Of a stretch of DNA of 37,284 nucleotides, positions 95-37,284 are shown piece after piece (position 1 is the stretch's first letter; every line of letters starts with the position of its first letter). The stretch is taken from NCBI RefSeq assembly GCF_000485595.1, contig NW_014577326.1, forward strand, positions 83,899 through 121,182, given 5' to 3'. The notes under the pieces were generated by a model that had not been told where the DNA came from, ran no database searches, and saw nothing but the letters and a program-made list of their open reading frames with translations. Both the position numbers and the translations under genes were made by a program. This stretch comes from Priapulus caudatus. Taxonomy: Eukaryota > Priapulida > Priapulimorpha > Priapulimorphida > Priapulidae.

Positions 95-355
95 GAGCCT
101 TCCACGAGGCACACAGCTAGAGGAGGGGAACCTTCCACGAGGCACACAGCTAGAGGGGGAGCCTTCCAAGGGCACGGCTAGAGGAGGGGAGCCTCCACGA
201 GTCACACAGCTAGAGGAGAGAGAGCCTTCCACGAGACACACAGCTAGAGGAGAGGAGCCTTCCCGAGGCACACAGCTAGAGGAGAGAGAGCCTTCCACGA
301 GACACACAGCTAGAGGATGGGAACTTCACGAGGCACACAGCTAGAAGAGGGGAGT
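95..355. repeat. Minisatellite, ~32 bp unit, about 8 copies
   Basis: Units built around CTTCCACGAGGCACACAGC followed by TAGAGGAGGGGA recur about eight times with small indels and substitutions (for example AAGGGCACGGC in the third unit, GAGTCACAC and GAGACACAC later). The first 60 bases of the window are also strongly GC-rich, unlike the AT-rich DNA that follows. The reading frame open across the array results from the repeat and resembles no known protein. Confidence 0.85.
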
Positions 356-616: not shown

Positions 617-2245
617 GACATGTAGTACTGACTTACTTTAGTAAATGGGGATGTGTGGACAGTGTTCTCCATCAGGAAGCACTGGAAAACTATTATGCTG
701 CCCCAGGTATACTGTCTACTTCTACTTACTTATAATGCATACGAGACTCTATAACTCTCTTACTTGTTACTGGGTGTTGCTGTGTTAGCCCATTAAAATC
801 TTTTGAAAGCTGCTTTTGTCTTAGACCTTTTACTTTTTAAGTTTTATACGCAAATCATGCTCTATTGAAACCGTGATGCTGAAGGGGATTTTTATCATAT
901 TACCATTGAACTATGAACCAGCAGTCTAAATTGCAAGACATGTTAACATGTATATCATGCGTACTTGGCTCCCCTATAAAGAAAGTACATGTGTGGAATG
1001 ATAAGATCGGCCACTTTAAACCATTATGAACAGTTGATTCTTATGCATAATATCCAGCGTTAAAACTGGTGATATTCAGTTTAGTAGGGACCTTGAGTCT
1101 TTAATGGCTTGCTATGTTTACAGAGGTCTGTGGCATTTTTAATGTCAGCTGTCTATGTGACTGGTGGAGTGTAGGAGCATTAGCCTACGAACTACTCACT
1201 GGCAGGGTAAGCTATGCCTATGGAGGTCACCGCCACACTGCGTACACTGTGTACATGGCGAGAACAAGCAGAGTATCTGCGCAAGCTGCATTTTTCAATA
1301 GTTTCATTATTAGTATTGCCATCAATGTTGTCATCAGTAAAATTTGGTGCACTTCTGTTTTCCTGAGCATAGGTGGTGTATATGCACCGAAGTATGACAA
1401 TACTTTACAGAGATGCACATCTCTGCACATATAATCGGATACACCAAAGTAAAGAAAATCCAGAAGAAAATCGATATTTATAAATGCTAAATAACAGTAA
1501 TACTGGACTTAGTTGTTGTTGATATTGACCTCATTTTGTCATTGTTGGGATGCGAGGATTCTATTCAGTTTCTTATTTTTTTGAGATCATTGTGTGGTTT
1601 GTTTTCTTGAGCCACCCACTCTTTGTGGTAGAACCGTGTGTAGGTGGCTGTCTGAACTGAGCTGCCTCTGTGCTTTCAGGCCCTCGTATCCTGTCATCCG
1701 AGTGGAATCAACAGCCACACCACAATCAATGTTCCACAGTTTCTCTCTCCTGAAGCAGGAAGCCTCATCACTGAGGTACATCCTCCCGTGTGACGTATGT
1801 TGTCATGGTAATCATCGTGGCACCATACGATGCTTGACATAATAGTAGCATTACACGTATTACGTATTACACGTAGTAGTGACTCGTATTACCTGTGTAA
1901 GCTGAGTGTGACATGTGTTATCTAGGTGAGCAGTGATGCTGTAAGCTGTACTGGTTGATAGGTGGCAAAAATTTCCTTTAATTTGAAAAATACATTCAAA
2001 TACTGTGCCCTGTGATTTGGCAGTAGCGTCAGCTCTTACTGAAACTTGTGGAGCAGTTTACCCTAAATGTGGGATTCTTGTGTGCTTACATTCAAGCAAT
2101 GTATTGAAACATAATCCCCTGCTGCGGTTTACAGTTGTTACGGTACAATCCCAATGAGAGGCTAGGGTCAGGAATCAATGGCGATGAGGAGATCAAGGCT
2201 CATCCGTTCTTCGTCGGGCTTGACTGGAGCAAACTGCAGCGGTGA
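617..2245 (+). CDS. RPS6KC1: RPS6KC1-like (RSKL1) kinase, C-terminal exons, 5' partial
   Basis: Four exons can be read: 617-706, 1124-1206, 1680-1775 and 2135-2245 (TGA at 2243-2245). All have AG/GT borders and phases that join. They encode the C-terminal half of the kinase domain: [11 protein letters not shown] in the activation-loop region, [23 protein letters not shown] (helix F), [19 protein letters not shown], and [13 protein letters not shown] ending at [13 protein letters not shown]. This order and wording match recalled RPS6KC1/RSKL1 rather than canonical S6 kinases. The loop has LTYF where DFG is expected, as in that family, so catalytic competence is doubtful. The PX, MIT and kinase N-lobe exons must lie left of the window. 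The frame enters 617 with one base supplied by an upstream exon. The related RPS6KL1 cannot be fully excluded. Neighbour: tail-to-tail with the C1orf198-like gene. Confidence 0.85.
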
Positions 2246-7280: not shown

Positions 7281-10200
7281 TTACCAGTTGTCAAGGAAAT
7301 CAAATCCTGATTTAGTATCCTGAAAATAGTCAATCAGAGAGGCAGATTTTATTAAATATGACTTTTCTGTCTGTTATATAGTACACTTGACAATGATGAC
7401 TAACACATTATAAAACAAAATAAGACCATCAGTTGTAATTACACTTAATCATTTAATTAGCATCTTTTCATGCACGTATTTAGGAAACTGACACGAGTTT
7501 ATTTCGATCTTGCTAGAAAAATGTGATTGCATTTGTGCACCATGCAAAGGTCGACATTTTCTATCATACACAAGCACGCTTATGCACGTATATAGTAGGC
7601 AAGAATGCATTCACACACGCACACACACACACACACACATGAACACACGCGCACACGCACGCACACACGCACACATGCACGCACGCACACACACACACAT
7701 TCGTATGTAAAAGGTTTACCTGGGTTGATGACTGCCTACTGAAACCAGCTAGGGGCTCATTCCATATCTCGTCTGCTACCGGACACTCCTGCTGGGTCTG
7801 GGTATCCGACACCTCGCTAACATTGTCTGAACTGTCGTCTCGGTTGACGTAGCTGAACAGGGATCCGCCGGTGAAGGCCGACACTGGGTCAGGCGCTGCC
7901 TTGTGCGAATTTTTGGCAGATTTGCTGCCGGGCTTCTTGTTTCGGTCCGGACAGGGTGGAGCAGCTTCCTTCGGTCTCGGAGGTGGCGGCTTGGATGGCC
8001 GGTTGAACGAAGGTTGATACTCTGCTACACGCTTCCTTCCTGCAAACACACGATGCCAATGAGACTGAAACCTTGTTTGGCATCACTGTAGATAGACTGT
8101 AATGAAACAAGTGCAAGTACGTAGATGTTCCATCTCTCTAAACTATTCCTAAGATGACAGACAAGTAAGAAGAATCAAGATTTTAACGCCACGTCCACGA
8201 ATCTCTATGAAACATTTTTCAACACTCGGATGCAACATCACTATTACAAATAAATTACCACTACTGATGGAAGTGCATTGTACACGCAAAACTTGTACTA
8301 GAAAACCCAACAGTCCACCATGTTTAGCTACTAGAAGCATCTCATAATAACATAGCGGTAACCACCTGCATCTGTCTCCTCTGCTAAATTCGGAGGTGGC
8401 TTGGAGAAACTCATTGAAATTTGTCCTAGTAGGTCTTCACTCACAGCCAGCTTTCCAGGATTATCCTTCTTAGCAAGCACCTGTATGAGGAAGGGTCATA
8501 ACAAACAGAACAGAGTGAAAAATTGGCGAACTGTAATGAAACGATGGTTCGAGAAACAACTACAGTGTTTCTGTTTTGTTCAGCATATCAGACCATCTGT
8601 GATAACTCTGCACTAGCTGTTACCAATCCAGAATATTAACAAGAGCAAGATAATAACACAGTCGTATAATCAACTTCTAATATTATATAACTGAATCCAC
8701 TAAGACATTGATAGTTACATCTAGAAACAATGACTTTGATTTAGGAATCACATGAGATATATGTTAACAATTGCTGATATACCGTGTCTTCTAAATGCCA
8801 GGAGTCAAGATCCATGTCCAGAATTTCTGACCGGTTGGCCGGTTGCTTGTAACCAGAATCTGACTCCCCGGCCACACGTAGGTTCATTTGGCTCTGCATA
8901 CACAGACAGACATTTGCTGAGCACTAAACAAATACTTCTGCAGTATTTAGGGGTCTGATATGTGTAATACAGGAGCTGTACCGTATAGTAGGATCTACTG
9001 CATACATGAAAATCAAAAGTTAAATAATTGTATTAAACCAATCATTAACCTCTTTGTGGTGGGTTACATACTACATGCAAAATTAGCAAATGATAAGATG
9101 CAAATTTTAACATTACAAGTGCGACTGTAAATGTCATTTTATGATGAAATATGGGTTTTACTGTTGCGCAACATGCCTACCATAGTTTCCCAAGAGAAAG
9201 GAGTAGAATGTTCATCTCTCCATGTTAATCCCTGTTGGGAAAATATATAGAAATTAAACATTTTCCAACCACATTAACCACACAACCACAGAAGTAACAT
9301 TAATGTACACCAAGGCCTAGTGATACTAAGTAGTGAACAGCTATAATACATATAATTCATGCATTAAATGGCTGCTTGCACTCAGTTGTAGCACAGTCAA
9401 TTGCTCTGCGTTTCTATACGCCAACAAGTTGATAAAAGACGAAACTCTTTTCAAACAAAAGCCGTATTCACGAATACACCGAAAATGATCACTCAAAACT
9501 AAATAGTTTTAACTAATCAACAGTATGCAAACTCAAACTCTTGTATAAAAACCTTGCATTTCACATGAAGCTACTTGTCTTCACAAAATCAATAACGATA
9601 AATAACCTAATACAAGGATTTCTAAGTTAAGTACCGTTGCCTTGCTGTTTGAATCCTCGGCACAGTCTGCGACATCAACGACAACCCTGTTTCCAGTCGA
9701 CAGCACCAGCTTTGGAAAGGACGGTGGATACGGTGTCGTAGGCGAACCGTCATCTCCACACTGCTTGCCGTGAGCATTGATCAAGTTGTTATTGATGATC
9801 TCATCTTGCTCATGAATGCTGAGTGTTTGCCAAGCATCTCCATACTTTGATTTCACCTTAAACAAACATGTTTCATATTCATATAATACAGGCATGAGAC
9901 AGACAAATGCTGAAAAGGGAGGAAGGGGAGGGTGTGGGGGCATGCCCCCCCAGATAATTTTTGAAAATTATAAGCCGTGAGATGCAAACTAGAGCCATTT
10001 CAGGGTACTCCAATAGCTTACAACTAGCAACACTTTTTGGTGGAAAAGGAAAAAATTATGTAAAATTTACCTACTGTAAAATTTTGATGGGCACTGGGGA
10101 ATACCGTCTGTGTTGAGTGTGTCCAAAGTAAATGTATTTTGTAGACATACAAGCTCTTACGTAGGGAAGCTTTTATTTAGCTACACCCCGTATAAAATGT

Positions 10201-23000: not shown

Positions 23001-25534
23001 TTGAGAAACAAGGCAATTCTGAGACTCATCACTTTTTGAGTCTACAGACAACAGTGTTTCCCTAAAGACCTTGCATTTACTATAAATTAAGTTGTGCACA
23101 AGTTTGATTTAGTGCAACCAGTTAACATGAACTTGAGAATGAACATTGAACATGAAACATTGAACATTGAACATAGACTCATCACTTTTTGAGTCTACAG
23201 ACAACAGTGTTCCCCTAAAGACCTTGCATTTACTATAAATTAAGTTGTGCACAAGTTTGATTTAGTGCAACCAGTTAACATGAACTTGAGAATGAACATG
23301 AACTTGAACATTGAACTTTGAACTTGAACATGAAACATTGAACATTGAACATTGAACATTGAACATTGAACATAGACTCATCACTTTTTGAGTCTACAGA
23401 CAACAGTGCTCTCCTAAAGACCTTGCGTTTACTATAAATTAAGTTGTGCACAAGTTTGATTTAGTGCAACCAGTTAACATGAACTTGAGAATGAACATGA
23501 ACTTGAACATTGAACATGAACTTGACGTACATACTGTACGTCAATGTTCTGTGCAACCAGTCCGTGGTAGATGTCTTCTCCATGCAATGATGACATTCGT
23601 GGTTTTATGCACTAATATATTTTTTCCAGAATCTAGAGATAGAGCAAAAAACTCCAATTAGGGTATTACACAGGTACTGTAATGTATATTTTGTAAGCTT
23701 GTCTAATGTAATTATACTCGCATGTTGTGCATAATTATGGCATAAGTATGCTGTATATATTTCTCAATATATTGTGTCATGTTTTACCATTATCACGATT
23801 GCATAACTGCACATGCGTGTTATCGTACTTTTACAGTAGCAAAATTCAAACCAGCAATTGATGTATTTCTGCACGTGTTCATGACAGGCGACCATTACAC
23901 ACAAGAAAGAGATTGGTTCTGGAAATGAAGTCGACGCTCATAGACAAGCACCATTTTAATTTGGAATTGGAAACCAATGCTGGAACGTATCCTTCTTCAG
24001 TGTCTTTTTGTTCACAATTCTGAAATGAAAATCAGTTAAGTTAGGTTGCTGTGGTTTTGCGATAATGGTAAGGTTAGTTCAGAAAACAGTGTAGCCTATT
24101 GTATATTGATGTGGTGTACACTTGTTGGCTACGGGGAATGTACAGTTAATTTTTGCTATCGCTCCGAATTTGTGCAATTTAATCTGTTTGAGAGACCTCT
24201 CTGTTTAAGACATACTGTACGTCATGAATGCATACTGTGTGTGGCTAGCAGTCCTTGATCATGCATTCAGTTACGTTAAGGAGTTCATTCACGGAGATTT
24301 CGGCCGAACTGTTCCTAACTTGACAATGCTGCTGAATGTAGAGACAGACATACTTGAGCTAGATGTCCTTGTGAGTAAAAACGTAGCTGCATGTGATTTG
24401 AGAAGACAGTAATTTTCTCACTTGTATTATACTTATTCACTAATCACAGCATGCACTCACATAGTTTCATTATATCTAAACAGGCACCATTATAAACCCT
24501 CGACCTATTATTATACTAAGTTGTGCGTTGAGGTAAAAATTAAGACAACACTTAACTTATTTGCATTCACTTTTTCATGATAAACTGCTTATATCAGTTT
24601 ATATTATATTATATATTATATTATATCATATCATATCATGTATTATAGTTTATTGTATTACTATTGCATATATCATAGTGACTCCAATCCTGGTCTTTGA
24701 TGCAGCTGTTAAATTAGCAACATGTTGCATAATTTATTTATAAACTAAAGTTTAAACTAAAACTAAGTTTTATTGTTTAATAAGTTAATTGGCAGTATTG
24801 TCACTTAAAAAATGTTCAAACACTGTTTCACGTATATGCATGTGTTATGCACACATACTGATTATATTGTTTGCTAAACTCATGTCTATCAAAGGCCAAG
24901 ATTTGTATCAAACATGTATACAGAATGTGTAATTTTCTTTTTGAATGTACTCTTTATTATAGTTGATATATAATTTACTTACATTTACTAATGCAAGGTG
25001 TATTATATAATAAGCTAAGCTTTGCTTGCTAAAAAAAACCACTAACCTACATAAAAAATCGCAGATGTTCTCTGAGGCATTCATGCATGAAATATCTGGT
25101 GCCACGGATCAGTTGCCTTACACAATCAGTTTTCAGTGTGAGTCTGACTGCACATAAAAACATTACAAATCCCACGTTGCAATAAATGGCGGGACCGTTT
25201 ATCAAGTTAATTGTGTTTAGTTGCTAGAAGATTATTTTCGGTTGTGTTATTTACTAAATTCCTGATCTAACTTTATGTTCTAAATCTGCCATCTCACTTT
25301 TGTTCTCGTTTGAATTCAACCAACCATATATGTTTAAACATGACATTTTAGTAATAAAAACTATTGGAGTGGTTTAGATAAGAAGTATAGAATAGTCTAT
25401 TGATTACAACATCATCAATAATCACCTTTCACTTATTCATCCGATTGTAGTTCATTTTAAGATATTTACTATTTGTAATGTTTTCATATTTTCAGTCAGT
25501 GAATGTTGATTGGCCACCTCCTGTTTCTTGCTGA
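14059..25534 (+). CDS. PUS10: PUS10, tRNA pseudouridine synthase, complete, 19 exons
   Basis: Exons: 14059-14106, 16827-16898, 17097-17213, 17348-17443, 17800-17886, 18359-18402, 19044-19155, 19465-19529, 19838-19901, 20147-20301, 21362-21447, 21699-21824, 22134-22267, 22570-22625, 22849-22966, 23630-23673, 23888-23986, 24271-24370, 25496-25534. They sum to 1662 nt, or 553 aa plus stop, with every phase joining; human PUS10 is about 529 aa. The family isomerises uridine in the tRNA T-arm (positions 54/55) and in vertebrates has also been linked to microRNA processing. The N-terminal zinc-type cysteines are present as C20-SR-C23 and C93-VT-C96. The catalytic-domain signatures are AGRYNKYSRMLCQTPWIIDG, SGREDVDVRTLGNGRPF (about 364-380, containing the family's catalytic Asp), HHFNLELETNAGTYVKEFIH and HGDFGRTVPN, ending DWPPPVSC. 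Residues about 214-287 are longer than in human, charged, and lack the CPDC pair I recall there. The end of exon 2 is the least certain border. Confidence 0.95.
14274..14335. repeat. Small imperfect inverted repeat
   Basis: GGCCTGTCATAAT and, about 35 bases on, ATTATGACAGGGCC can pair with a single bulged base. It lies in PUS10 intron 1 and may be a hairpin remnant of a MITE. Confidence 0.5.
14643..15125. mobile_element. MITE with perfect 40-bp TIRs and TA target duplication
   Basis: The first 40 bases (14643-14682, starting GCTCCAAGAAACGGTATT) are identical to the reverse complement of the last 40 (15086-15125). Each end is flanked by TA (14641-14642 and 15126-15127), as for Tc1/mariner-type insertion. 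Each TIR is itself nearly palindromic: AAACGGTATT, 11 bases, AATACCGTTT. The 483-bp element has no coding capacity and lies in PUS10 intron 1. Perfect TIR identity suggests recent activity or gene conversion. Confidence 0.92.
15126..15245. repeat. Palindromic TACTAG microsatellite plus a solo TIR fragment
   Basis: A self-complementary TACTAGTACTAG array (15126-15209) is followed by a third, truncated copy of the preceding MITE's terminal repeat (15210-15243, GCTCCAAGAAACGGTATTGC then diverging). Confidence 0.85.
15263..16103. mobile_element. hAT-like MITE, 841 bp, with 8-bp target duplication
   Basis: Left end CAGGCCTCGAATTAA and right end TTAATTCGAGCCCTG are inverted repeats with one mismatch. 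They are bordered by identical 8-bp copies GTACTACT (15255-15262 and 16104-16111). Eight-base duplications and CAGGGCTCGAA-type ends are typical of hAT elements. The interior has AAGGCAA-rich repeats, several GACGGCAATTGCCGTC-type palindromes near the right end, and a nested start-like motif AGGGTTCAACATTAACTTTT near 15540. No transposase is encoded. It lies in PUS10 intron 1. Confidence 0.92.
16112..16826. other. Remainder of PUS10 intron 1
   Basis: No exon or complete element seen. A C-rich patch at about 16466-16490 (GAGCCCCCCTCCCCCCGCG) looks like the edge of another dispersed repeat. Confidence 0.4.
17938..18240. mobile_element. hAT-like non-autonomous element, 303 bp (copy 2)
   Basis: Starts CAGTGTTTCCCTTGGCC and ends GCAGGGGAAACACTG. 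Interior blocks GGTGCATTCTAAGCTATTCT and GCCTCGCTCGTGTCAATGCA are shared with 12566-13544. Flanks CTTATAC (17931-17937) and CTTATAT (18241-18247) look like a slightly decayed target duplication. It is in the PUS10 intron between exons 5 and 6. Confidence 0.85.
18515..18900. mobile_element. Repeat fragment with C-rich and T-rich tracts
   Basis: After a TA tract (18518-18540) comes GGGGGCACCCCCCCCCC, then GAGATGCAATCTGGACAC, then two poly-T runs (18757-18766 and 18789-18805). The C-run followed by GAGATGCAA is also seen inside the element at 9889-10966 (about 9940-9990), so the two probably share a family. Ends are not defined. PUS10 intron 6. Confidence 0.45.
20331..21233. mobile_element. Mariner-like MITE, ~900 bp, with internal direct duplication
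   Basis: Ends GCTCACCTTG and CAAGGTGAGC are perfect inverted repeats, each flanked by TA (20329-20330 and 21234-21235). Inside, about 158 bp beginning TACGGTCAACGATAACTTGA occurs twice in direct orientation (about 20400-20558 and 20711-20868) with moderate divergence. GTCCGTCCGTCCGTC follows the left end. No coding capacity. It lies in the PUS10 intron between exons 10 and 11. Confidence 0.88.
23023..23520. repeat. Tandem repeat, ~150-200 bp unit, three copies, with nested TTGAACA microsatellite
   Basis: Units begin AGACTCATCACTTTTTGAGT at 23023, 23175 and 23374. Length differences come from variable numbers of the nested 7-mer TTGAACA. Shared cores include AAGTTGTGCACAAGTTTGAT. The copies are highly similar, so expansion is recent. 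The array follows PUS10 exon 15 by about 55 bases, within the intron before exon 16. Confidence 0.92.
23522..23544. repeat. Perfect 10-bp hairpin palindrome
   Basis: TTGACGTACA, a 3-base loop TAC, then TGTACGTCAA. The string CATACTGTACGTCA recurs at 24211-24224 in a later PUS10 intron, suggesting a small dispersed element. Confidence 0.75.
23987..24270 (+). other. U12-type (minor spliceosome) intron of PUS10
   Basis: The donor GTATCCTTCT (from 23987) fits the U12 consensus GTATCCTT exactly. TCCTTGAT at 24252-24259 fits the U12 branch-site consensus TCCTTRAY, with the branch A 12 nt before the acceptor end at 24270, inside the normal U12 window. The intron is 284 bp and interrupts the Thr codon of AGT-YVKEF in the catalytic domain. 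Confidence 0.9.
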
Positions 25535-30530: not shown

Positions 30531-30570
30531 GGGATAACGCGTTGTGCTGCTGTGCAGAGAAGAATCCGCA

Positions 30571-33500
30571 ATGAGAGCCGTGACATCTATAGGCCTGCTG
30601 CTGTTGATCCTGGTAAGAACTATATGTATATTGTATGGTAGTATACTATATATTGTATCAGTAGTGAATAAAAACAATGTGTTTGTTCATTCCTGACAGT
30701 ATATACCGTATACCCCGCGAGTAATTTCTTGCAAATCTATATGCAGTGTGATCGATCTGCATGTTCATAAGGTACGTGCACGTGCTCAACATACGTATAC
30801 TATTGCCCTTTTTCGTATACTCCCAAATTTACTATCAGGTTGAAATGGCTTTCATCGTAGATGCATATACGTCTAGGTTACTGGTAAGAACTGTTAAGCA
30901 ATGGGATCAAATTGATGTTCACACTTTTGAATGATATATATGATAGCCCCTTTTTACATGGGGTTGATTCCGTGATTCAGTGACTGGGATTTTGTAACAT
31001 TGTGACAAATCGGCAAGAAACGCATTCCCGAGTTTTTCATGGCGCAGCATATATTACGTGCTTACGCGTGTATCTACAATCTACGTTACTTTTCGCGCAG
31101 GTGACCGCAGAAGCAGTGCCCTCGTTGTTCAGATACCCGGTTCCTACTCGGCATGCGGACCAACCTCATTCCGCCTCCAGGGAAACCGGCCTCGTATCGC
31201 CACGCACGCGAGAGGTCGCTCCGAGCGTCAGCACTTACACGAGCAGGAGGGATAGCGTATACGGGCCGAGCTCAGCAGTGCATCGAAATCCGATTACCAA
31301 CATCCGGGGAATAAGACGCGATCCGGCGCCGCCGTCGCGTCCGTCTAGACCTGCGACGTACGATAGCTCGCGGACGAGGCAGTACGAACAGCAGCCGTTC
31401 CAAGTATTGCAGAGGGAGACGACCCCGCACAGTCCCGATCTGTACCCTGCTCCTGCACCTCCCACTCGCGCTACTTACGAAGCATCTAACGAGCAGTCGT
31501 ACACTCAGCCATCGCGTAATAAGGACGTTTACAACATACCACCGTTCTACGAAGGGCCGCTGCCGGGCGTATATAATGATGCAGTCGCGTTCAGTAAACA
31601 GCAGCAGATTCCGTACCAGGCGGAGCGCCCTCCGGCAACATCAAGGTATACACGACCACAGGAAACGTACGCGAGGCCAGTTCAACAACAACGCGAACCA
31701 TCAGAAAACCGGGGTGTATATATCCAATATTCATCACCCAGCCGCGGGCAAGTAGAATACGAAAATTCATATCAGCGACCCACACAAAGATATCAACCAC
31801 GCGAGGCGCCACCAGCATACGCAGGGCCTCCGCCAAGGCAAGAATTCAACGCAAGACAACAGGAATCACAGCCGCAAGCCACCACTGAACATCCGTTGCT
31901 TGCGGGAATTGATTTTCTCTCATTTGGAGACCCAAATGCCCCAGGCAATGAGGGCATACTAGGTCGCGAAAAAATTGTATACAACGAACCAGTGAGATAT
32001 CAACAATTACCAGCGAAAGAAATAACATATTCGTTTCCACCGAGGACACCGCGGTACGGCGGTAACGGCCAGCAAGTGCAACAGGCACCAGGAAGAGTAG
32101 GCCTACCTCTAACGCAACGATACGAGGCACCGCCACATGCTGATAGACAAAACGTTAGATACGAGGCACCGCCACATGCTGATAGACAAAACGTTAGATA
32201 CGAGGCACCGCCACATGCTGATAGACAAAACGTTAGATACGAGGCACCGCCACATGCTGATAGACAAAACGTTAGATACGAGGCACCGCCACATGCTGAT
32301 AGACAAAACGTTAGATACGGGGCACCGCCACCTGCTGATAGACAAAATGTTAGATATGAGGCACCGCCACCTGCTGATAGTCAAAACGTTAGATACGAGG
32401 AACCGCCACCTGCTGATAGACAAAATGTTAGATATGAGGCACCACCACCTACTGATAGACAAAATGTTAGATATGAGGCACCACCCGCGCCAACAAGTCA
32501 ACCAAGGCCCTATAAATTAAGATTAGACAATGGTAGGATTGACACCGATGATTCATTGTCCTACACCCAACGACCGACTCATAACAAACCGATCAGATCT
32601 CCTCTGGAATTTTCGCTTCCCGCGATAAAAATACTTCCACCAGATTTCAAGCATCCATCTTTAAGCGGATTTGAGTTCCCAGGCTTTCCAGGGTTTGGTC
32701 TAAATCCGCCGGAAAAGGCCACGGAATATAAACAACCAGATGTGAATAGCGAGGAATCATATGGTCAACCGAAACCTCAAGACGAGTACAATCGTAACAC
32801 TCCTCCCGTACGTGCAGTAAAGGACCCGCGAGACTCTGCACCAGCGTACAGACAGCCTCCACCACGCCAGCCAGAACACCAGCAGCCTACTAGTAAGCAA
32901 AGCTACGAACTTCCTCCGCTTTTTAGAGAGCTGACAGCTGAGTACGAAAAGCAACTAGCTGCAAAATCTGAACGCCCCCCAGATGCTCCACCATCTGATA
33001 GACAGATCTATGCAGAGCCTCCGAAATATGTTGAACAACGTCCGGTGCAATACGAGAAGCTGCCGCCAACATACAATCAACAGCACGAAACACCACCATA
33101 TCCGAATGTCAGAGATGCAAGGGTACCCGAATACCCAAGCCAAAGCCCGGATGTTCCAACTACATATTCTAGCCAAAGTTATCAAGGTCCATCTCCTACC
33201 TCTAGCCAAAGCTATGATCGCCAACCCGCATACGCGAAACAAGACTATCAAGGTTCTCCCACATCTACTGGTCAACTCTATGATAGTCCACCTGCACTCA
33301 CTGGTCAAGTATACATTGGTCCACATACATCTATCGACCAGATCTATGCAAGGCCACGAACATTTTCTAGCAAAACCTATTCTGGACAAAATTATGATAG
33401 TGCGTCATCGAATCCGGGAGCTCAGTATGAAAGACCACCACCATCCGACCGAGCATACGAAAGCCCACCAGTTCGCACTGTCCAAGCTGAGAACTCCAGG

Positions 33501-34286
33501 CGAGACTATGAACAGCAAGCGCCTCCTCGCCCCACGTATGAAAGACCACCTTCCAATGCAGGTCAAAGTTACGAGGTGCCAACATTTCCAAGGGAAAGCT
33601 ACAAAAGAGCACCTCAGCCTCTGAGGCAAACTTACGAGGAAGGACCACCTCCCAGTGCAAAATACGAGAGGCCAGCTCCGAGGCAAATATATCAGCAGCA
33701 CCCACACTTATCTACTAGAAAAAGATACGAAGTTTCAGCGCCAAAGGCACCGAGCCAAATATATGGAGCTCCTGCACAACTCATTGTTGAGGAAGAAGCG
33801 GAGAGCAATGTCCAACCACAGGCTCTTCCACGGCCCACCACGTACAGCCAAAACCCGGAGGGAATAGCACCAATTTTGTCACCATATGAATCCGTTAGAC
33901 CGTTCAGCCAGCGCCCTGCTCCTGCAGTAAGTGATCCTTCAGCTGAACATCAGCCTCGGCTACCGTATATTGCACCCCCACGATACGACCCGGCAGTCAG
34001 ACGTGACGAGCCGTCTGCACGTGTGGCACCACCCCCTTCTCCCACTCATCTAATAAGCAACACACAGAAAAGCAGTGCAGCATCGACCCCCGATCGAAAA
34101 GATACAGTTACAGTTGAAACATCCGATCCATCCTCAAAGAATTTGCGCGGACCATATTTTAACGACACACCCAGAGGATATTTTGGCAACAGCGCGCCCA
34201 GTAACCCATTCTTCCAAGCGTTTCCGGGATATAAGTACGCAGTCGACGCTTTCAAGACAGACGATTCAACTGCAAAGATAGAATAG
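30571..34286 (+). CDS. Secreted Tyr/Pro-rich repeat protein, cysteine-free, probably extracellular matrix or adhesive
   Basis: Exon 1 (30571-30612) encodes MRAVTSIGLLLLIL and ends at GT; exon 2 (31101-34286) follows TTTTCGCGCAG and continues in phase as VTAEAVPSLFRYP. The product is 1075 aa. Residues 1-19 form a classic signal peptide, with likely cleavage after VTAEA. The rest has no cysteine or tryptophan and no recognised domain. It is rich in Pro, Tyr, Gln, Ser and Arg and dominated by Y-x-x-P-P motifs, such as RYEAPP, QIYAEPPKY and TYERPPS. Nine 13-residue repeats occupy about residues 354-470. Two hydrophobic islands (PLLAGIDFLSFGDP; LSGFEFPGFPGFGLNPP) and an aromatic C-terminus (RGYFGNSAPSNPFFQAFPGY) break the disorder. 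An ATG at 31002 in the intron is in frame but lacks a proper signal peptide, so the spliced start is preferred. An AG at 30530-30531 may end a 5' UTR intron. Function is inferred from composition only. Confidence 0.85.
32118..32468 (+). repeat. Nine in-frame 39-bp repeats encoding RYEAPPxADRQNV
   Basis: Nine consecutive 39-bp units lie inside the secreted-protein gene, followed by a partial tenth (RYEAPPAPTSQ). The first five units encode the same 13 residues and are practically identical in DNA; later units vary (His to Pro, Ala to Thr, Arg to Ser, Glu to Gly) and carry synonymous changes. This gradient points to recent expansion at the 5' end of the array. The unit length is a multiple of three, so copy number can change without a frameshift. 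Confidence 0.97.

Positions 34287-34366: not shown

Positions 34367-34414
<48 letters not shown>
34367..34414. repeat. AT microsatellite in the 3' UTR region
   Basis: About 24 AT dinucleotides, beginning 80 bases after the stop codon of the secreted-protein gene. Confidence 0.97.
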
Positions 34415-34594: not shown

Positions 34595-34600
34595 AATAAA
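34595..34600 (+). terminator. Likely polyadenylation signal AATAAA of the secreted-protein gene
   Basis: The AATAAA hexamer lies about 310 bases after the stop codon at 34284-34286 and is the first canonical signal downstream. Confidence 0.5.
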
Positions 34601-36707: not shown

Positions 36708-37284
36708 ATGTTCGCTCTTGACCACTATCACTATGCTCGCTGGATGACGGTTCATGTGAGAGATAAACTTGCCCTCGAGATTAACTGCCCTGCCACACAT
36801 GCAGAGTTTCTCAAAGGCAACTTTGTGACACAGAAAACCATGCACAAATTCTCAGAACTAGCCCATAATCAAGTTCATGAACAGCTGAATGCAATGGTGA
36901 AGGGAGATGGAGGCGTAATAGGTATCACTGAAAATGAAGCAGCACTGAGACGGTGGATGGTGGCAGGTCCAGAAACAGCTAGACTATTAATGGAGTATGA
37001 TGACAAACATTCAATTAAAAAGAAGGACACAGAACGCCACCATGAACAAATACCACGTGTGCAGAAGGCTTTCTTGATACCAAACAGATAATGTCCGATA
37101 GTGTGGTAGATACTATAAGGTCCGCAGAAGACATAGGCAAAGCACAGTACCAGAACTTTGTTGCGGAGCGTATCAATGACAATATCACTGCATTCAATGA
37201 CACCATACATAGGTACAATATGCCTCTGTTGAATTCTAGTTCAAGAACAAAACCTGCGAAGTCCACTTCCAATATTTCCAACCT
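36708..37284 (+). pseudogene. Broken fragment of a transposon-associated protein, runs off the right edge
   Basis: A frame at 36708-37091 encodes FALDHYHYARWMTVHVRD, then AHNQVHEQLNAMVKGDGG, then ITENEAALRRWMVAGPETAR. From memory this series (ALDRxxYARWxxVHxRD, HEQxNAxVKGDGG, LTENxxALRRWM) belongs to a multi-copy protein family in cnidarians, molluscs and fish that behaves like a mobile-element gene; its enzymatic role is unknown to me. After PRVQKAF the frame stops at 37091, but homology-like sequence resumes in another frame (FLDTKQIMSDSVVDTIRSAE, then GKAQYQNFVAERI) to the window end. The usual residues between these two blocks are missing. This indicates an internal deletion with frameshift, so the copy is probably dead. 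No clear coding start upstream was found. Confidence 0.7.

What the first reader, a model, noticed from the sequence alone, without database searches (positions are those of the whole stretch)
30571..34286. Undescribed cysteine-free, tyrosine/proline-rich secreted repeat protein
The sequence shows a signal peptide on its own small exon followed by one large exon of 1061 codons with no Cys or Trp, very many Tyr in Y-x-x-P-P contexts, and in-frame tandem repeats. I recognise no homologue. By analogy with known Tyr-rich adhesive, shell-matrix, cuticle and egg-case proteins, it could be an extracellular material cross-linked through tyrosines (DOPA or dityrosine). That role is inference from composition.
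Basis: partly seen in the sequence, partly recalled or inferred. Interest (0 to 1): 0.85.

Follow-up and report, generated by a model that had tools for sequence, protein, structure and literature searches.

The report
Tyrosine-rich secreted repeat protein, penis worm
This is a real gene of the marine penis worm Priapulus caudatus for a secreted, floppy, tyrosine- and proline-rich repeat protein for which no convincing relative was found, most likely a cross-linked structural part of the worm's cuticle or another outer covering.

Summary
The window is Priapulus caudatus (named by the protein match). The gene has a 14-codon first exon (30571-30612), a 488-base phase-0 GT-AG intron and a 1061-codon second exon (31101-34286). 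The 1075-residue product starts with a signal peptide and has no Cys, no Trp, 77 Tyr and 177 Pro. RefSeq already holds it as 'PREDICTED: extensin-like isoform X2', with the same junction and one 13-residue repeat fewer. Three word-seeded protein searches returned only itself; its own genome gave itself and two weak repeat-array matches judged coincidental. Tyr recurs about every 11 residues well outside the perfect array, so much of the protein looks like an old, decayed repeat array. Best reading: a disordered extracellular structural protein fixed through tyrosines by heme peroxidases, of which the genome has several but none found beside it. The closest working analogue is the nematode epicuticlin Asu-EPIC-1 (PMC9612446), with a similar gene layout, but its GYR and YGD motifs are absent. 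Secretion and disorder are well supported. Cross-linking and cuticle location are inference.

The parts
30571..30612 (+). Exon 1, coding part: 14 codons, n- and h-region of the signal peptide
   Evidence: upstream in-frame stop at 30535 and no other ATG; identical N terminus in RefSeq protein P0001
30613..31100 (+). Phase-0 GT-AG intron, 488 nt
   Evidence: donor and acceptor bases; length; same junction in P0001
31101..34286 (+). Exon 2: 1061 codons plus stop, the whole mature protein
31101..31115 (+). Last five residues of the inferred signal peptide (VTAEA, cleavage before VPS)
   Evidence: A-x-A rule (recalled) applied by eye to the translation; no SignalP available
32119..32482 (+). Near-perfect 39-bp / 13-residue tandem array, unit RYEAPPHADRQNV; copies 1-5 identical at DNA level
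   Evidence: RefSeq isoform X2 lacks one copy
32496..32780 (+). Tyr-poor stretch between the repeat regions (exon-2 residues 466-560)
   Evidence: no other protein at E <= 10 among 24 candidates
32736..33848 (+). Degenerate repeat region (residues 560-930), Tyr at lag 11 (and 22, 27), loose unit Q-x-Y-E-x-P-P
   Evidence: (11 Tyr pairs at lag 11 against 2.8 expected), listing; (overlapping 32781-33980): no second copy in the genome at E <= 10
34595..34600 (+). Probable poly(A) signal AATAAA
   Evidence: 309 bases after the stop codon
29817..29824 (+). Possible TATA box (TATATAAA); would imply a 5' untranslated exon with an acceptor near 30531
   Evidence: string match only, weak

Best explanation
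A single-copy priapulid gene for a secreted, intrinsically disordered structural protein of an apical extracellular matrix, most likely the cuticle. Shown by sequence and searches: the signal peptide, the two-exon layout, no Cys or Trp, a long Tyr/Pro/Arg/Gln-rich chain built from 13-residue and older ~11-residue Tyr-centred repeats, and no convincing relative. Inferred: the chain is secreted by epidermis, condenses through its many Tyr and Arg side chains (98 Arg, 77 Tyr), is kept extended by Pro, and is then made insoluble by peroxidase/dual-oxidase coupling of tyrosines, giving a strong but moultable layer without disulphides.
For: Gene model, composition and repeats; RefSeq model with the same junction. 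Disorder: mean hydropathy 0.362 against a Uversky boundary of 0.416 for the mature chain; AlphaFold gives mean pLDDT 33.8, the signal peptide as the only helix and six short strands, all in or next to the array (single-sequence model, so weak evidence). Tyr regularity outside the array, 0 of 5000 shuffles. The genome has 46 heme-peroxidase (PF03098) exon matches on 12 contigs; the 14 control genomes gave none. Analogy: the Ascaris epicuticlin gene has a 55-bp exon 1, an intron and a tandem-repeat exon 2, with repeat number varying between clones; its protein has a 20-residue signal peptide, is disordered, and dityrosine antibodies label the layer (PMC9612446: abstract, sections 6, 7, 14 and passages). 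In C. [quoted passage not shown] In a decay experiment of 7.5 months the outer cuticle of Priapulus stayed generally intact (PMC5011709, passages).
Against: No expression or tissue data; no proteomics. No chitin-binding or other matrix domain. No peroxidase match on its own contig C266, and no tyrosinase-like gene seen nearby in an incomplete scan. Epicuticlin motifs GYR and YGD and insect YLP are absent. Low complexity alone does not prove a structural role; salivary, gland and egg-coat proteins can look like this.
Confidence: 0.5

Rival explanations
1. Secreted and disordered, but of another extracellular place: egg coat, adhesive or mucous gland, or pharyngeal lining, with or without tyrosine cross-links.
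For: A literature search on Tyr/Pro-rich dityrosine proteins gave two papers, both with eggshell or chorion in the title (listing only).
Against: Adhesive, resilin and cuticlin motifs recalled from memory (YPP, SYGAP, AAP[AIV], G[YG]G) number 0 in it. No positive evidence for any of these tissues.
Confidence: 0.33
2. An intracellular protein related to the pre-mRNA cleavage factor PCF11 (RFEG repeat).
For: Pfam PF20844 matches the array alone at 45.6 bits against a cut-off of 43, and the database lists PF20844.3 for P0001.
Against: Below cut-off for the whole exon product (35.4 bits) and for P0001 (30.8). The flanking 338 and 593 residues match no family at E <= 10, so no other PCF11 domain was seen. 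Signal peptide present. Arrays of quite different residues that repeat every 13 also score against the same stretch (L002, L003), so a shared period favours such matches.
Confidence: 0.03
3. A spurious long reading frame or a bioactive-peptide precursor rather than a structural protein.
For: Some basic pairs (RR 4, KR 2) could be processing sites; repeats with small differences recall peptide precursors.
Against: The frame is far longer than chance, the splice junction agrees with RefSeq, codon-position GC is 0.61/0.52/0.40 in exon 2 against 0.38/0.40/0.39 upstream, and the 13-residue units hold no dibasic sites. A spurious frame is very unlikely; a precursor is merely unlikely.
Confidence: 0.06

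Closest known systems
Nematode epicuticlins (Asu-EPIC-1; C. elegans EPIC-1 to -3)
   Same: Ecdysozoan secreted protein; signal peptide mostly on a short first exon; second exon of tandem repeats; disordered; Tyr at regular places; no Cys in some members; repeat number varies between clones (PMC9612446), as between the window and RefSeq X2.
   Different: Repeat unit 49-51 aa there, 13 and about 11 aa here; GYR and YGD motifs absent here; 1075 aa (mature pI 8.85) here against 373 aa and pI 4.28; no epicuticlin among the hits. No direct alignment to an epicuticlin was made.
C. elegans CUT-2 (low-complexity, non-ZP cuticlin)
   Same: Secreted low-complexity ecdysozoan cuticle protein linked to dityrosine formation (PMC11304992, passage and cited title).
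   Different: Its AAP[AIV] motif (recalled) occurs 0 times here.
Insect resilin / pro-resilin
   Same: Disordered Tyr/Pro repeats joined by dityrosine (recalled).
   Different: Gly is only 3.8% here; SYGAP 0, GGRP 0, YGAP 2; no PF00379 chitin-binding domain matched.
Mussel foot protein 1
   Same: Secreted Tyr/Pro decapeptide repeats (recalled).
   Different: Lys-poor here (2.7%); YPP and YPPTY occur 0 times.
Plant extensins, the RefSeq name
   Same: Pro/Tyr-rich; Extensin_2 (PF04554) scores 23.8 bits against a cut-off of 20.8 on the array alone, with no single stretch passing on its own.
   Different: No match on the whole exon product; SPPP and SPPPP 0; a plant family, so the name describes composition only.

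Membership tests
Nematode epicuticlin | Signal peptide, short first exon, repeat-bearing second exon | tested here: met
   layout of Asu-epic-1 from PMC9612446
Nematode epicuticlin | GYR and YGD motifs in each repeat | tested here: not met
   GYR 0, YGD 0, YLP 0 in 1075 residues; PF02756 not matched
Nematode epicuticlin | Intrinsically disordered | tested here: met
   charge-hydropathy; AlphaFold without fold (weak because single sequence)
Nematode epicuticlin | Located in the outer cuticle | not testable with these tools
   needs in situ or proteome data
PCF11 | Whole-protein score over Pfam cut-off, and other PCF11 domains | tested here: not met
   35.4 against 43 bits; flanks match nothing at E <= 10; array alone does pass (45.6 bits)
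Plant extensin | Ser-Pro(3-4) repeats | tested here: not met
   SPPP 0, SPPPP 0 (motif recalled)
Arthropod CPR (R&R) cuticle proteins, including pro-resilin | Chitin_bind_4 (PF00379) domain | tested here: not met
   no match listed at E <= 10
Tyrosine cross-linked matrix protein (functional class) | Dityrosine, DOPA or other Tyr cross-links in the native material | not testable with these tools
   chemistry needed; only Tyr content and spacing shown

The most novel reading that the evidence does not exclude
Priapulids armour their cuticle with a lineage-specific, Cys-free Tyr/Pro/Arg polymer that evolved independently of, yet converged in gene layout and chemistry with, nematode epicuticlins and insect resilin, in a genome where no arthropod-type R&R chitin-binding domain was found (without a positive control). 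Tyrosine coupling of this protein would be part of what makes the priapulid cuticle so decay-resistant, in living worms and perhaps in Cambrian fossils.
Probability: 0.25. Interest if true: 0.75.

Novelty: new variant of a known kind. Interest (0 to 1): 0.5.

Why it matters
Priapulids belong to Scalidophora, one of the main branches of moulting animals, and their tough cuticle matters for the reading of Cambrian worm fossils (PMC5011709, passages). My six literature searches that paired priapulids with cuticle chemistry or tyrosinase turned up no account of a priapulid cuticle protein (open-access library only, judged mostly from listings). A named, apparently single-copy candidate makes 'what is a priapulid cuticle made of?' directly testable by exuvia proteomics. 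If confirmed, it would suggest that ecdysozoan phyla arrived separately at disordered Tyr-rich cuticle polymers.

Tried and rejected
PCF11 relation: rejected because the match lies in the array only. Paralogues L002 (E 1.3e-7, 31% identity) and L003 (E 1.9e-4, 25%) from the genome search: rejected, but with results to tell. Both match only the 13-residue array (exon-2 residues 346-463 and 337-467). The L002 frame that aligns best has the unit PPGGRGCVNWSAS, with Cys, Trp and Gly and no Tyr; the L003 unit is KQAAESQKLKEQA, with no Tyr and no Pro. When I permuted the 13 columns of our array alike in every copy, keeping the period, 6 of 1000 permutations reached the L002 score and 0 of 2000 the L003 score (126 against a maximum of 121). 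So period alone does not fully explain L003; that it was the pick of a whole genome, its Lys/Ala/Glu make-up and the lack of any flanking match are my reasons. The first L002 test used the wrong strand and was redone for all six frames. The open frame of 6500 codons given for L002 runs through unknown bases (1495 N in the 3354 bases fetched). RefSeq isoform X2 as evidence of alternative splicing: not accepted. 164 placements of a 39-nt deletion give X2, of which 4 have GC-AG ends, 4 AT-AC and 0 GT-AG, so a repeat-number allele, a sequencing artefact or a forced mini-intron are all possible. Solved structures: none of 177635 distinct sequences at E <= 1. AlphaFold: no usable fold, so no fold search was made. 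Rfam (gathering thresholds) and tRNA scans of the window: nothing. Tyrosinase (PF00264), GYR motif (PF02756) and CBM_14 (PF01607) searches of the genome did not complete.

Full report
WHAT IT IS. The window is from Priapulus caudatus, a priapulid worm: the protein search returned one hit, 'PREDICTED: extensin-like isoform X2 [Priapulus caudatus]', 99% identical over the whole of exon 2. The window lies at 83899-121182 of contig C266 (332460 bases) of an unnamed 385-Mb genome. The contig recorded for the hit is 343715 bases long, so the genome held here may be another version of the assembly. The hit stands for two member sequences; I saw only isoform X2.

OBSERVATION. The gene model, residue counts and repeats are as claimed. 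An in-frame stop at 30535 with no ATG between supports the start, and a probable poly(A) signal lies at 34595. The open frame of 1100 codons compares with a maximum of 263 in 200 simulations of the exon. Two corrections: the first exon carries 14 of about 19 signal-peptide residues, and the gene is already a RefSeq prediction.

INTERNAL STRUCTURE. Nine 39-bp copies and a broken tenth encode RYEAPPHADRQNV-like units; copies 1-5 are identical, and of the 8 positions that vary among copies 1-9, 4 are at codon position 3, 3 at position 2 and 1 at position 1, which says little about selection. Outside the array (933 residues, 67 Tyr), Y..P occurs 28 times (shuffles 11.0), Y..PP 11 times (1.8), Q-x-Y 15 times (5.6; 1 of 5000 shuffles reached it), YE 16 times (4.3), and gaps of 10-11 residues between Tyr 20 times (4.7); apart from Q-x-Y, none of 5000 shuffles reached these values. 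In residues 560-930, 11 Tyr pairs lie at lag 11 against 2.8 expected, with further peaks at 16, 21, 22 and 27. So much of the protein looks like an old, decayed Tyr-centred repeat array within which one unit has recently re-amplified. The RefSeq isoform lacks exactly one 13-residue unit. This could be repeat-number polymorphism, as reported for Ascaris epicuticlin clones (PMC9612446, sections 6 and 14), or an annotation artefact.

RELATIVES. No convincing one. Three protein searches returned only itself: whole exon product at E <= 0.001, 1 of 7988 scored candidates, the candidate list having been cut to those sharing most words; residues 466-560 at E <= 10, 1 of 24; residues 900-1061 at E <= 10, 1 of 691. 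The tool needs shared 5-residue words, so remote relatives can be missed. In its own genome the whole exon product finds itself and two arrays that also repeat every 13 residues, at E 1.3e-7 and 1.9e-4; their units carry no Tyr and quite different residues, and I judge them coincidental, although one of them scores just above 2000 period-keeping permutations (details under tried and rejected). The 400-residue stretch 32781-33980 finds only itself at E <= 10. No solved structure is similar in sequence. Pfam gives only the PCF11 repeat, below cut-off for the whole exon product. On the array alone both the PCF11 repeat (45.6 bits, cut-off 43) and Extensin_2 (23.8 bits, cut-off 20.8) pass, while both flanks match nothing. 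I read these as compositional.

NEIGHBOURHOOD. Of contig C266, bases 1-281182 of 332460 were held (102246 of them N) and scanned for open frames of at least 60 aa (window), 80 aa (L004-L008) or 110 aa. Twenty hand-picked frames out of those lists were scanned with Pfam. They show a sulfotransferase gene, a DEAD-box helicase piece and, upstream of our gene, PX and protein-kinase pieces (16.8 bits each, both below cut-off) that by recall suggest an RPS6KC1-type kinase. No tyrosinase, peroxidase or cuticle gene was seen. Small exons would be missed, so this is weak negative evidence.

CROSS-LINKING MACHINERY. The genome has 46 An_peroxidase (PF03098) exon matches on 12 contigs, none on C266; the 14 control genomes gave none. 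The number of genes is not known. The R&R chitin-binding domain PF00379 gave 0 candidates, but the tool warns that this does not show absence. The tyrosinase search did not complete despite many repeats.

MECHANISM. Best supported: secretion as a disordered chain (charge-hydropathy well on the disordered side; AlphaFold mean pLDDT 33.8 with the signal peptide as only helix), then assembly into an apical extracellular matrix. Inferred: condensation by Tyr/Arg contacts and covalent fixing by tyrosine oxidation with peroxidase or dual oxidase. In C. [quoted passage not shown] The cuticle is my first choice because it is a dominant secreted material of this phylum and stayed generally intact in a decay experiment of 7.5 months, with some fraying of the trunk (PMC5011709, passages), not because of direct evidence.

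WORKS LIKE VERSUS BELONGS TO. It works most like a nematode epicuticlin in gene layout and chemistry, but is not filed as a member: GYR and YGD are absent and no epicuticlin was among the hits. It is not an extensin, CPR or resilin, or PCF11, by the tests listed.

LITERATURE. Six searches in the held open-access library paired priapulids with cuticular proteins and chitin (0 papers), dityrosine (0), tyrosinase (0), sclerotized and chitin (5), epicuticle (2) and cuticle protein (3). Judged from the listings, and for PMC8588615 and PMC11226638 from passages, none appears to describe a priapulid cuticle protein. A broader search for Priapulus caudatus with cuticle gave 42 papers, of which 30 were listed, and one with peroxidase gave 10; only the listings were seen, apart from the passages cited. 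Subscription literature on priapulid cuticle histochemistry could not be checked.

VERDICT. A real, apparently single-copy, lineage-specific gene for a secreted disordered Tyr/Pro-rich repeat protein; a plausible and testable candidate for priapulid cuticle; role unproven.

Noticed in passing
window 36708-37284 (+): Two overlapping open frames (36708-37088, 127 aa; 37046-37282, 79 aa) in different frames, which read to me like pieces of one interrupted mobile-element gene; no significant Pfam match.
   Followed up: partly
window 1105-1431 (+); L004:5618-5908; L004:8915-9190: Likely exons of a kinase gene upstream (weak Pkinase and PX matches below cut-off for the first two, none for the third), by recall like RPS6KC1.
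   Followed up: partly
window 7567-8082 (-): 172-codon open frame that reads like a coding exon in its upstream part, then runs into a CA repeat; no Pfam match.
   Followed up: partly
window 95-354 and 23140-23525: A 33-bp tandem array (8.1 copies) and a 199-bp duplication containing TGAACAT heptamers.
   Followed up: no
window 34367-34414: Perfect AT microsatellite of 24 units inside the probable 3' untranslated region.
   Followed up: no
G000, whole genome: No Chitin_bind_4 (PF00379) candidate in the Priapulus genome although its cuticle is usually said to be chitinous (recalled); no positive control, so absence is not shown.
   Followed up: partly
G000:C12:1101595-1114280: Cluster of heme-peroxidase exons suggesting at least two tandem genes; 46 matches on 12 contigs in all.
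   Followed up: no
L002 (G000:C109) and L003 (G000:C2): Other repeat frames of 13-residue period in the genome, with units PPGGRGCVNWSAS (L002, minus strand of the locus) and KQAAESQKLKEQA (L003); the L002 repeat is open in five of six frames over the matched stretch and runs into unknown bases.
   Followed up: partly
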